DNA of 64,000 nucleotides from Ectobius pallidus (taxonomy: Eukaryota; Arthropoda; Insecta; Blattodea; Ectobiidae), in contig CAXKWD010000007.1 of assembly GCA_964059195.1 (NCBI GenBank), positions 149,593,769-149,657,768 of the forward strand. The letters run 5' to 3'. Shown one piece after another: positions 7,501 to 63,400 of the stretch (the stretch's first letter is position 1; every line of letters begins with the position of its first letter). The notes beneath the pieces are model-generated. The model did no database searches. It was not told where the DNA came from and saw only the letters and a program-made list of their open reading frames with translations. The position numbers and the translations under genes are program-made.

Positions 7501-10500
7501 GATATAAGTAAACAGAAACAGGCTCATAATAATAAAAATATATTGCAATATAGGCCTACTTTATCTACAATGGAGACACTTAATACGTAATTGCACAATG
7601 TTTCAGTTCAGCCCTCAAACCTTCCTCAGGTGACTCACTGTTAAAAACTGTCTGCTGGGAAGAAGATTCCTTGTCATCTGTCGTTAGCAGTGAGTCACCT
7701 GAGGAAGGTTCGAGTGCTGAACCAAAATGTCGTGCAATTACATATTAAGTGTATCCATTGTAGATAAAGTGCATTACAATATATTTTTATTATTATTATA
7801 TATACAGTGGGAATTCGGGACCAACCATGATAAGCTGCAGAAACAGGCTTCAGAAACAGGCTTATTTCCCCTGCTGTAATTTATGATGGTTGTGACCCTC
7901 AGAAAGGGGTGTTTTTGTGCAATCAGACAGTCTCATTAGTGAAGTTATATGTTTTATAGTGACCATGGCCGGGCATTCTCGAGACATATTTGTTGCCAGA
8001 AAGGATGATGAATAATTATTAGAGTAGTTAGACGGTACAATTTCAACCCAGATGATTTACCCTATGATCAGTGGCACAAACTTTTGGAAAACATTGGGTT
8101 GGCTTGAAAACTTCTCTTTTAAATTTTGGGATTTAGATAACTACTAAAATAAAACCACACATGGACCCACAATTATGTAGCATGGCATGCTGCAAAATAA
8201 GTGTTTTTCTTGACTGGAGTTCTTGCAATAAATTAATCATTATCTTCTTCTATCCTTTTCTAGCCTGTTCTCCCTAATCTCTTTTTCATAGAGGACCCAA
8301 GCTCCTACTTCCCTCTGGTTTGTCCCTTGCTGATTTAACCATTCTTCCTTAAAATATTCTCTCTACATGTTCGTTCTGCTCTGACTTTCTTCTTTTTAAC
8401 CAGTAATCATTGTCTTGTACTCCACCCTCTTCTCTTTTTTCACAATTACTCGTCTTATCAATTAATTGTCCTTTCTGTGATATTTCTTGATCACAAACAT
8501 CATCTAAAGTTTAAATCGAACTTTTCTGCACTCTTTTTATGTAGTATAACAGCTTATGTGATTAAGTTTTTCTGGATGAAAAAATATATTTTGGCGTTTG
8601 CTATGGAAACTGCATTCACAGAGTAAGACGTAAAATTTTAAATAACCGAGGAACGATTTCAAACGAACTTGAGTGAACTGGAACAAGAGGAGATCGTACA
8701 ATATATGTCAACAATAGCTTGATTTTTGCTTTACAGCAATTCAACAACAAATATGATCTTTAGCAATAGCAATAAATAATTATGATGATAGTACACAGTG
8801 CCACCAGGGCCATGGAAAGAAAGCATGGGCCCCAAGGACAAATTTTCCCATTCCCCCATTAAATATTAAATTCACTACCCAACTCGCCCTTTATAATGTA
8901 TACAACAAAAAGATTATGTAATGATATTACATTATTATTAAGTAAGTGCCACAATGATACCAGTACTTTATGAGATTGTCTGGTAGGCAGAAAAGTATCT
9001 GTCCATCTGACTGTCTGTCTGTGTGTCTGTAAGTGCGATAATTCAAATAAGCTTTATTGGATTTTCATAAAACTTGGTATACCATTTATAATGCCCGTGG
9101 ACCAAATCGGTTAACTGATGCTGGGCACGAAATGGAAAAATACAATAAAATGTTCTAAGTTAATTAGGAACAGTTTTATCTGTATGTACCAGTTTAATCC
9201 TTTGAAAATTATGATTTTGAATGCCGAACGTTAGTGAGGCCTACTGTTGAGTCCAAAAGGATTTCTGCTTCTACTTCTAAAAAATAGCAATCTTTCTTAA
9301 AAAATAATCCATTTCAGATTAACTGATTAATTCCGTGTCACCATTGTACGACAGGACAATGCAGATAAAATAAACACAAAGAACATAACTTAGAATAAAT
9401 TTAGAAAGTAAAAAATAAAACCTGGTCGGCTGGGCCCCAAGGCTACTGCTCCTCCCTCTCGTCGGGCCTGGGTGCCACTGCCTATGATAGTGTTAGTGAT
9501 TTTGTTTGATAGTAGTCATAAGCAGAAAAATTGTCCTCCAGGAGGAAAAACTCGGTCCTTTATGCGTAAAAGAAGACTTGGCATTCTAGGTATAAAGGAA
9601 TCCCTAAAAAGGATGGCAATGAGCGGATGTGAGGGTAAAGCCAATTGTATTGGTACTGGGCAGCAAGAGGGTTAATTACTGCTGTTTTACCTCGATGCGT
9701 TGGTCATAGCCATGGGAAGAAAGCCTGCTGACCTCAATGATGCCAAGAGTACCACTGGGGAACCTGAGTGTGATAAACACTGTGTCATAGTCCTTGATGT
9801 TAGCAATCTCCGGTGTCATTGCACTCCCCATTGCACATGCTTGAATGGGGTACTCGCCCAGCATCCAGCACATGAGATCAATGTCATGCGCTGCTGAGTC
9901 ATGGAAAATTCCACCTGTAAACAATGTAGTATTTTGTCAATTAGGCTTATCTTACTGTTAGGGTATTTCTTTGAGATTACCAGCTATCTGCCATAACAAG
10001 TAAACTGCTAGTGGTTTCTTAAATGATGGCTTTAGCCGTTTGACTCTATCTCTGCTACAGCCATATATTTGCATCAGCATGCATAACATGCTACTGAAAT
10101 TAGTTTTGGATTGACCTTAAATTACTGACATCTTCCCTTCCTGATACAAAACGTAGAATTTTTCTAACTAATGTTTTAGAAATCTCGTATTTGGGGGGTT
10201 CGGACCCCCAGGACCAACCTCTTCTTGGATACGTCCTTGGTGTCATCTGTTATCTACATCCTGACACCATCAGTTCCCTGTTATGTCTTGGGCTGCCATT
10301 TCTAGTTAAATATTTCAAGCGATGTAATGCACCATCCACGAAATGCATGGTAACTAACTCTGCTGTGTTGTGATGAGATTCTTCTCCGGGGTTGCTCAAA
10401 TCAATCTAAACTTCAGGAAATAGTGCTGTGCTCTTGTTTCAGATGAAACTGACAAATTGTTTCAGATATTTTATCTATTTATGATTCCAAAAGAAATTTG

Positions 10501-60400: not shown

Positions 60401-63400
60401 GTCTGTACGCGCGATAACTCAAATACGCTTAATCGGATTTTAATGAAACTTGGTATACGCATTTATAATATCCATGGGAAGAAGTTTGTTGATATTAGAC
60501 CAAATCGGTTGGCCGGTACCGGATTAATGCCCAATTTAGTGCCTTTTTAAGGTAATATATATCACAAAGGCGCGGATAACTCAAATACGCTTTATCAGAT
60601 TTTCATGAAACTTGGTATAGCCTACGCATTTATAACGTCCATGGGAAGAAGCCTATTGATATTGGATAAAATCGGAAGACCGGTATCGGAGTAATGTCCA
60701 ATTTAGTGCCTATTTTATGGTAATATATTATAAAGAATTTAACAAATGCAAGTTATCCTGACAACATAATATGTTTTACACTGTTCATGTACGCCTTCGG
60801 AATTTGCAATACAGTTAGCCATGACATATCCCTTCGCATTTGATTATCAAACTAGTCAGAAGTTTATTTCGTTGATAAAGTTGAATACTGTTATATACAG
60901 AAGATATATTACTGTAAAATAATTAGGCCTACGTACATTAAGTGGAGTTCTTCGCCTGTGTATTTTGTAAAATGTTGACATGTTTTAAGAATGTCTTATA
61001 TCAGTGTATACGAGTTTAAATTAAGGTTAAGTATCAAACTCACCTTTTTTCTTCTTTAACGCCGGGTTTCCGAAACGTAAGATATCTACTAGATGGCATT
61101 ATTCAATCCGTAAGCGTTTCTGAAACGTTCGATGGTGGCTAATCGTTCAATAAAACGCCCTACAAACTATCGCACCATAAATCACTAGATATCTGGCGAA
61201 ACGGTAGATAAACACGCAACATGGCGGAAATGCGAAATATTTATGTTGATGTATGTTTCGTTATTATGTTAGCATTTAATCTTACATTATGTTACTAGCT
61301 TGTTATGGTATTAAAATTAAAAGTAGTAATGAAGCTGACATTGGTTATTAATTTGTGTGTGAAATAATTCATAATACTGTACTAGAAAAATTGTATATTA
61401 TCGGTTAGATGAACTTTGTTATAGCCTAGGCTATTGTATCCATCGTTTATTTGTATTAATTTCATTTTCTGTTGTAAGTTAATACTTTAAGAAAACATCG
61501 CGAATATTAATTCACATCATATTTTCTTGCTGGTCATTTTCAATGCCAGATCGTATAAGGCCTAGGTCTATACAGAAGTAAATATTCCCTGAAAGAAATA
61601 CAGCAATCCTTTCAAGAAGTAGCCTACGATGATATTCAGATTCGGAAAAAATGTAGCTTAAGTATATTAATTTTATTTTGTGATGCAACACTTTATGAAG
61701 AAAATATTGCCATTTTACAGCACGAATATTAATACATAATCATCATCTTTCTCGTCATCTTCATCCTGAGGCAATAATTAGGCCTAGAGATGTGTAAAGC
61801 AAAAAGTATTCCCTGAAAGAATTAGATCTTTGACGATATTGAGTTTCGGAAAGAATCAGGCTGTCAAAGGAATGACCTATGGATAAATAGGCCATCATAT
61901 ATTAAATAAGAACAACTGCAAGCATGCCTTTTTCAGCGTTAAATTGCCCATCATTAGAATTGGGAACAACCATCGAAGCATTCCTTTCTGTGGTAAATTA
62001 GCTATAACTTAATTAATGTGTTACGTTTTACGCATTATGTTGTCAGGTTGTGATGGGTGACATTTTTCTCTAATGCACAAGTCTCGAAATCGAAATTACC
62101 GTAGTTTATCTCACGTTTTACATTCATTTTAGCAGACAAACAGCAGACAAGGAAAAGCAGAAAGATAATTCAGCCATTTTGAATAGAATAGCAAGAAGCG
62201 CTCCGATTGGTTGCTATTCAATCACGGCCAACTTGATATTAGAGTAAGCACCGTGTCTCCATCTATTGACAAAGTGCTCAACTCATTTATCTGACATTAG
62301 CTATTTCTTGAGCAAATTCGCTTTCGGAAATGGGAAGGTGTTTATCGAGTCTATATATGTATAGAACGATTAGCTGTCTAGAAGATATCTGGAGCTTTTA
62401 TGCAACCGGGCCTAAGTCCTGCTTAGTGAATCGATCTGCAGCTTAATTCGGAGGTAGATTACAAAAATAACTTAGGCTAAGTTATATTATGCATACCATA
62501 ATTGCAATTAATTTATCACTGATTAAACAAAAATATTCTGGCACTTTGTTATATACCAGTTTACCTGATTTTATTCTATATAGAAATAGTCATGGTTCAG
62601 TGTTAAGTTTAAGGTCAAAATTTCGGTTTAGCGTCGAACATAACTTAATGACTTTATTGTTCAGGTAATATTTATGTCACATTGAATCCACATTAATCCA
62701 CATTAAATCCATACGCATCCACATTAATCCACATGAATGTACATTGAATCCACTTTGAATCCACATTAGATCGGCTTATATATTAGATCGGCTTGCTAAT
62801 TTACTAGTTTTGTAAAATGAAGTGAGGAAGTGTGGACATTGTGAAATTCGTGGACTTTTACGCGGTTATAAACATGTTCGTGGGATTTCAACGACTTGAA
62901 TTTCAAAAATAAGGCGAAACGTGCGATTGCCCTGGATTTAATTTGGAAGAAAATTGGTGCAATGAATTTCCCGAAATCACTTTCGTGAAAGTAGTTACGA
63001 AATTTAGTGTCATCATCAGGGCCCGGATTCTGATGACCTAAAGTTGTTTGAAAAATGACCTATAAAATGACCCTAAAATTTAAAGAAAATGACTTAATAA
63101 TTATAAAAACTGACATTTTATTTATAAATATTAATTATTATAGACACAAAGTTATAGACTAGTTTGTACATAATTGTAAAAACTGTAAATAATTGTAATG
63201 TTGTGATTGTTCTTTTCTCACGGAAATTTATACTGGCACTGAGGCACTGGCGAGTCAGAATTCGGCATTTCCTTTTGTGGTCTGCTGAATTATGTTGTTG
63301 TTTAATTGAGGGTAAGCAGTAGTTTGCACTCTCAAATCCAAACAATTGGCAGACTCTGGTGCCAAGTCAATCGAATAACAATAGTAATATAATACAAAAT

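What the first reader, a model, noticed from the sequence alone, without database searches (positions are those of the whole stretch)
7552..60623. Palindromic AGGCCT micro-insertions between T and A in aligned repeat copies
In eight independent comparisons, one copy has an extra AGGCCT (or a one-base derivative: agcct, aggct, gggcct) exactly between a T and an A where the other copy has plain TA or its mutated equivalent. Cases: T5 at 33901-33906 vs T4/T6; U2 at 25320-25325 vs U1; T7 unit at 60619-60623 vs other T units; T3 at 30926-30931 vs T2/T4/T6; G1 at 35583-35587 vs G2; J1 at 14526-14531 vs J2; one arm of the MITE at 36832-37337 (near 37293) vs its other arm; one arm of foldback b (7552-7557) vs its other arm. 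The result is the 8-bp palindrome TAGGCCTA, and such octamers or decayed forms (TAGCCTA, TAGGCTA, TAGGTCTA) occur dozens of times across the window, including unique DNA. A recurrent, sequence-specific hexamer insertion at TA is not something I can match to a described transposon or repair process.
Basis: seen in the sequence. Interest (0 to 1): 0.88.

Follow-up and report, generated by a model that had tools for sequence, protein, structure and literature searches.

The report
Half-million TAGGCCTA scars in insect genome
A 2.1-billion-base genome, probably an insect's, holds 520,230 copies of the eight-letter palindrome TAGGCCTA, 35 times as many as of the same letters read backwards; in repeated DNA several of them are seen to have arisen as a six-letter insertion at a TA, likely the scar left when a cut-and-paste jumping gene, not yet found, cut itself out.

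Summary
Seven of the eight cited cases realign as 5- or 6-base insertions between T and A; foldback b is ambiguous. TAGGCCTA occurs 520,230 times in the 2.12-Gb assembly (reversed control 14,707), TAGGCTA/TAGCCTA 640,131 times (control 142,758). In a 314-kb sample, 15 of 75 groups of 5-6-base indels are this sequence, all with TA as the empty site; the youngest lies in repeats 97% identical. TA-GGCC-TA and TA-GGC-TA are separate primary products. The outer flanks show a symmetric preference (A at -3, purine at -1), resembling ANNTANNT, the published Sleeping Beauty target consensus. Best reading: excision footprints of a Tc1/mariner-type transposon with GGC(C) ends, whose self-complementary overhangs would give a uniform palindromic scar. 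The donor was not found: eight mariners read have CGAG-type ends, two of five Tc1-like loci begin CTATACC, three were unresolved, and the sample shows no TA|GGC...GCC|TA element. The three-base scar word of those mariners is not in excess; their four-base word is, twofold, on small numbers. Rivals: telomerase healing of breaks, or an unknown micro-insertion process. Footprints are known; one footprint as a leading dispersed word of a genome was not described in anything my searches listed.

The parts
33900..33907 (.). TAGGCCTA (T5): 6-base insertion at a TA of the T repeat
   Evidence: 7 partner alignments lack it
25319..25326 (.). TAGGCCTA (U2): 6-base insertion at TA
   Evidence: 2 partner alignments lack it
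35219..35226 (.).
   Evidence: 2 partner alignments lack it
14525..14532 (.). TAGGCCTA (J1): 6-base insertion at TA
   Evidence: clean gap against a copy 84% identical
7551..7558 (.). TAGGCCTA in one arm of foldback b; insertion likely, other arm mutated
   Evidence: 6-base length difference, other arm reads GC at the site
30925..30932 (.). TGGGCCTA (T3): 6-base insertion, one base changed
   Evidence: 6-base gap in three partners
60618..60624 (.). TAGCCTA (T7): 5-base insertion at TA
   Evidence: 16 partner alignments lack it
56586..56592 (.). TAGCCTA: 5-base insertion at TA, shared by three copies of the family
   Evidence: 3 partner alignments lack it (group of L037:797)
35582..35588 (.). 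TAGGCTA (G1): 5-base insertion at TA
   Evidence: gap in the copy near 57190
37294..37300 (.). TAGGCTA in one arm of the MITE 36832-37338: 5-base insertion at TA
   Evidence: 4 partner alignments lack it
21035..21041 (.). TAGGCTA: 5-base insertion at TA
   Evidence: 1 partner alignment lacks it
8958..8965 (.). TACCAGTA: a different TA-duplicating insertion at the TA that aligns with the T5 insertion site
26061..26068 (.). TAGGCCTA that is old in a SINE-like repeat, not a visible insertion
   Evidence: 6 partners, no 6-base length difference

Best explanation
TAGGCCTA and TAGGCTA/TAGCCTA are likely excision footprints of a Tc1/mariner-type cut-and-paste transposon whose ends would read TA|GGC...GCC|TA. 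Shown: in aligned repeats the empty site is TA and the filled site is TA plus GGCC, GGC or GCC plus TA. Shown: the flanks of the octamer are chosen as ANRTAYNT. Inferred: the element inserts at such a TA and duplicates it. Inferred: the transposase later cuts a few bases inside each end, leaving 3' overhangs GGC or GGCC. Inferred: two GGC overhangs pair through their GC and fill in to exactly GGCC, which would make the scar a uniform palindrome; loss of one base or of one overhang gives the three-base scar. Inferred: such scars accumulated and fixed over a long time, to about a million sites.
For: TA as empty site in all 15 groups of the two insert classes, of 75 groups of 5-6-base indels. Two discrete insert lengths with one sequence; both words in genome-wide excess, while TAGGTA, TAGCTA and TAGGTTA are near expectation. 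Symmetric flank preference: -1 purine p 1e-8, -1 G p 4e-11, -3 A p 1.6e-4, ANNTANNT 21 of 80 against 12% of all TA, matching the Sleeping Beauty consensus (PMC2756404, one passage). Mariner/Stowaway excision leaves TSDs plus short end sequence (PMC4561436, passages). The genome is rich in mariner and Tc1-like transposases, some with long open frames (first-look candidates 5222 and 6152, 150 scored of each). Recent: L034 against L038, 97.0% identical over 437 columns. A second TA-duplicating insert, TACCAGTA, stands at the TA that aligns with T5. The four-base scar word of the CGAG-ended mariners, TACGAGTA/TACTCGTA, is twofold in excess, 12 against 5.4-6.0 (small numbers).
Against: No donor found: 8 mariners read have CGAG-type ends; of 5 Tc1-like loci two begin CTATACC and three were unresolved; no convincing TA|GGC...GCC|TA element in the sample. 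The three-base scar word of those mariners, TATCGTA, is not in excess (25 against 30-33). Single-overhang scars TAGGTA/TACCTA are absent as an excess. About a million scars need long, heavy activity that left few visible elements.
Confidence: 0.5

Rival explanations
1. A micro-insertion process with no larger element: an enzyme with transposase-like site choice puts GGCC or GGC plus a duplicated TA directly at TA sites.
For: Same insertion data; no donor seen; number of sites; ongoing.
Against: No known enzyme does this; the flank preference and TA duplication are already explained by a transposase.
Confidence: 0.2
2. Telomerase heals both ends of a break between T and A: each 3' T is extended by AGG (insect telomere repeat TTAGG, recalled), and the ends are joined to T-AGG-CCT-A.
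For: The inserted halves are exactly AGG and CCT; 5-base forms would be incomplete extension; no donor needed.
Against: A second repeat should often follow: TAGGTTA is at or below expectation (40 against 43-58); TAGGTTAGG occurs twice and TTAGGTTAGG once in 314 kb. T before the octamer is depleted (0.21 against 0.34), though TT would prime best. No one-sided T-AGG-A insertion among the 3-base indels. The direct genome-wide count of TAGGTTAGGCCTA did not complete.
Confidence: 0.12
3. hAT elements are the source: several MITEs of the window begin TAGGG and end CCCTA, so TAGGCCTA would be their joined tips.
For: TAGG...CCTA inverted pairs: 9 in the window against 0, 2, 1, 0, 1 in five order-1 resamples.
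Against: Their TA lies inside the element: 8-bp duplications flank two of them exactly (CTCATTAG at 4850-5515, CTTATCAC at 52296-52942) and a third with one mismatch (45168-46033); two others show none. The inserts show TA only, no 8-bp duplication. Ac/Ds footprints come from flanking DNA (PMC4561436, passage).
Confidence: 0.03
4. A functional palindrome (binding site) kept by selection, or an ancestral word deleted in some copies.
For: Strong genome-wide excess; 9 of 20 alignable octamers are old in their family.
Against: It enters scattered repeat copies as an insertion absent from up to 16 partner alignments; it is somewhat denser outside repeat-covered sequence (0.28 against 0.21 per kb) but not confined to either.
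Confidence: 0.05

Closest known systems
Excision footprints of Mariner/Stowaway and other Tc1/mariner elements (PMC4561436, passages)
   Same: target duplication kept plus a few bases between the copies; TA; host end-joining inferred
   Different: donor unknown; one palindromic sequence dominates; about half a million intact sites
Minos (Tc1-like) four-base footprint TACGAGTA (recalled, not looked up)
   Same: TA, four bases, TA
   Different: bases GGCC instead of CGAG; Minos is not the donor here
Interstitial telomeric repeats made at breaks by telomerase (recalled)
   Same: AGG/CCT fits the TTAGG register
   Different: no multi-repeat tracts; wrong flank preference
HIP1 (GCGATCGC) of cyanobacteria (PMC4390886, search listing only)
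   Same: a palindromic octamer in great excess over a genome
   Different: linked there to methyltransferases; here it enters by insertion at TA

Membership tests
Tc1/mariner excision footprint | TA target, duplicated around the insert | tested here: met
   empty site TA in 15 of 15 groups of the two insert classes
Tc1/mariner excision footprint | inserted bases derive from the ends of a known donor element | tested here: not met
   no donor with GGC ends found: 8 mariners and 5 Tc1-like loci read, 314-kb sample scanned; only a small part of the genome was readable, so I describe it as working like such a footprint and do not file it as a proven member
Tc1/mariner excision footprint | target flanks with the palindromic preference reported for a Tc1/mariner element (ANNTANNT for Sleeping Beauty) | tested here: met
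   21 of 80 against 12.0%, p 4e-4; 3 of 47 control sites
Tc1/mariner excision footprint | excision shown experimentally | not testable with these tools
   no experiment
hAT excision or insertion | 8-bp duplication or palindromic flank-derived scar | tested here: not met
   inserts carry TA only, sequence constant
PIF/Harbinger-like (PHIS) | 3-bp TSD, or AT for ISL2EU; precise excision in the Tourist/PIF group | tested here: not met
   2-bp TA and a scar; PHIS TSDs from PMC4482050 passages, precise excision from PMC4561436 passages
Telomerase-made interstitial repeat | runs of the telomere repeat at the junction | tested here: not met
   TAGGTTA at or below expectation; TAGGTTAGG twice in 314 kb
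MITE or transposon copy | inverted ends enclosing a body | tested here: not met
   3-4 bases between the two TA; in the window TAGG-N(k)-CCTA has 0-4 hits for each k of 1-40 against 16 at k=0

The most novel reading that the evidence does not exclude
A genome is being written over, at about a million places, by a TA-targeted micro-insertion system that adds a fixed 3-4 base module with transposase-like site choice and carries no larger element: a mobile sequence reduced to its own footprint.
Probability: 0.2. Interest if true: 0.95.

Novelty: new variant of a known kind. Interest (0 to 1): 0.76.

Why it matters
If these are footprints, an eight-letter scar records transposon excisions over much of a genome's history, even where the element itself is gone, and each alignable site is a polarised marker. 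It would show that joining of self-complementary overhangs can make one palindrome a leading dispersed word of a 2-Gb genome. If they are not footprints, an unknown DNA-inserting process is at work. Either way the question is directly testable by comparing related species or individuals.

Tried and rejected
Decay as the source of the 7-mers: rejected, because 5-base insertions are seen directly and the 7-mers' excess over control is about as large as the octamer's.

hAT TAGGG MITEs as donors: rejected on their 8-bp duplications where these could be read. CGAG-ended mariners as donors: rejected. L031:4040-4422 (ends TAGGTTTAAAC) and L037:1492-2533 (ends TAGGGCAAAACC) are inverted-repeat elements next to TA with GG...CC tips; neither begins GGC and their boundaries were not proven, so I left them open. 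Five TAGGC...GCCTA pairs in the sample are, on the rows shown, inner parts of longer inverted repeats (three) or chance pairs of octamers (two).

TAGG...CCTA-dense or repeat-sharing contigs in viral contigs: 5 and 11 stretches; none showed a general octamer excess.

Literature: searches for TAGGCCTA, TAGGCCTAC, AGGCCT with palindrome/insertion terms, cockroach/octamer terms, AGGCCT with transposon and insect, footprints with 8-mer terms, and excision-footprint terms listed nothing that describes this; listings were cut at 20 rows (78 papers; 32 papers), and only titles and abstract starts were seen. Passages were read of PMC4482050, PMC4561436, PMC2756404, PMC5801840, PMC3016246 and PMC3979674.

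A first self-alignment returned no alignments, probably through unsupported gap costs. Searches printed more than could be shown and were cut; only visible rows were used.
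Full report
What was checked. The cited places contain the stated letters. Realignment confirms seven of eight as 5- or 6-base insertions at TA relative to other copies and leaves foldback b weak. TAGGCCTA occurs 16 times in the window against 0.8 expected.

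Genome-wide. The window is G000:C7:149593769-149657768 of a 2,124,618,226-base assembly in 410 contigs. TAGGCCTA: 520,230 sites, reversed control 14,707. TAGGCTA plus TAGCCTA: 640,131, reversed control 142,758. My sample (the window and 25 stretches of 10 kb, all on C7) has 80 octamers in 314 kb, 1 per 3.9 kb, close to the genome's 1 per 4.1 kb, so satellites do not drive the count, although one at the start of C1 carries the octamer (L006-L013). In the 264-kb sample only microsatellite-type 8-mers rank above it by z-score (words with at least 8 copies).

Organism. Best named protein hits: Diploptera 66%, Periplaneta 63% and Timema 61% for an inositol-dehydrogenase-like gene (the top hit, 72%, is unnamed; a beetle, Asbolus, gives 61%); Ooceraea, Periplaneta and Ladona for a LINE reverse transcriptase.

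Insertion, not deletion. In 314 kb, repeats aligned to each other (self-hits of four satellite-rich stretches left out) gave 244 groups of indels of 3-10 bases. Of 41 six-base groups, 8 are AGGCCT and 13 duplicate TA; of 34 five-base groups, 7 are AGGCT/AGCCT and 13 duplicate TA; no other five- or six-base sequence exceeds 3 groups. Of the 15, 14 are in a single copy each and one in three copies; partner alignments lacking the insert number 1 to 16. Grouping was by similar context and may merge or split a few events. Of 20 alignable octamers in the 264-kb sample, 6 show a 6-base length difference, 5 messy gaps and 9 none beyond two bases. The youngest event seen lies in copies 97.0% identical over 437 columns (L034 and L038).

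Two products. TA-GGCC-TA and TA-GGC-TA (or TA-GCC-TA) both arise as insertions. TAGGTA, TAGCTA, TAGGTTA and TATCGTA are near expectation. Other TA-N-TA words in excess: TACAGTA 76 against 46-60, TACGAGTA/TACTCGTA 12 against 5.4-6.0, TACCGGTA 7 against 2; TAACTTA 108 against 63, TACACTA 71 against 42, TAGTGATA 41 against 11, and TAGACCTA, one letter from the octamer, 19 against 6.5 (order-3 model). I did not follow these up; repeat families may explain some. None but the microsatellite-like words approaches the octamer.

Target choice. Outside the octamer, -1 is purine (G 0.39 against 0.17 for all TA, p 4e-11) and -3 is A (0.49 against 0.34, p 1.6e-4), counted on both sides; -2 and -4 to -8 show nothing. 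R.TA.Y: 42 of 80 against 24%; ANNTANNT: 21 of 80 against 12%. A pooled set of 47 sites of nine unrelated TANNNNTA words gave 28% and 6%. ANNTANNT is the published Sleeping Beauty preference (PMC2756404, passage). PMC3016246 states that all Tc1/mariner elements target TA (passage).

Mechanism. PMC4561436 (passages) states that Mariner/Stowaway excision sites keep the TSDs and often some element sequence, unlike the precise excision of Tourist/PIF and the flank-derived scars of Ac/Ds. I infer a donor with GGC or GGCC ends: the overhangs GGC of the two ends pair through GC and fill in to GGCC, so the favoured join would be TAGGCCTA; loss of one base or one overhang gives the 7-mers. The 3-base mariner stagger and the 4-base Minos scar are recalled, not looked up.

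The gap. The donor was not found. Eight mariners with long open frames, of 150 listed and 5222 candidates, have CGAG-type ends (15 of 16 ends CGAG, one TGAG). Of five Tc1-like loci, of 150 listed and 6152 candidates, two of one family have inverted repeats beginning CTATACC, one has only an 18-base inverted repeat, and two are copies of a larger repeat whose ends were outside the stretch. The sample holds no convincing TA|GGC...GCC|TA element, but it is 0.015% of the genome, so a family of a few thousand copies could be missed. The three-base scar word of the CGAG mariners is not in excess, which counts against scars being common in general; the four-base word is twofold in excess on 12 sites, which counts for. 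I hold the footprint reading at 0.5, an unknown micro-insertion process at 0.2 and telomerase at 0.12.

Novelty. Excision footprints are known; a single palindromic footprint at half a million intact sites is not described in what my searches listed (titles and abstract starts only, two listings cut).

Noticed in passing
window 4850-5515, 45168-46033, 52296-52942: hAT-like MITEs with TAGGG...CCCTA or TAGGA/TAGGG ends and 8-bp target duplications (the second with one mismatch).
   Followed up: partly
window 32741-34684, 56092-56525, 60408-60728: Tandem repeats of about 145 bp containing CCGGTACCGG, next to TGTC microsatellites.
   Followed up: no
window minus strand: 13908-14219, 11948-12358, about 9689-9917; 59538-59834, 50005-50304: Exons of two neighbouring copies of an inositol-dehydrogenase-like (Gfo/Idh/MocA) gene.
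   Followed up: partly
window 42523-43689 and 27612-28169: LINE-type reverse transcriptase frames (Pfam RVT_1).
   Followed up: no
start of G000:C1 (L006-L013): A satellite-like array that carries one TAGGCCTA every few kb against many related stretches without it: one insertion apparently amplified.
   Followed up: partly
L037:1492-2533: About 1-kb element with perfect terminal repeats TAGGGCAAAACCGGGTGACGCGCCGCAC; superfamily not settled.
   Followed up: partly
L039-L046: Several mariner families with open frames of 352-403 codons and CGAG-type ends, suggesting recent activity in this genome.
   Followed up: partly
G000 sample, words TAGTGATA, TAACTTA, TACACTA: Other TA-N3/N4-TA words above an order-3 expectation; may be further footprints or repeat families.
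   Followed up: no
L052-L062 (IMG/VR contigs): Local clusters of 3-9 TAGGCCTA in contigs with no general excess, some in tandem repeats.
   Followed up: no
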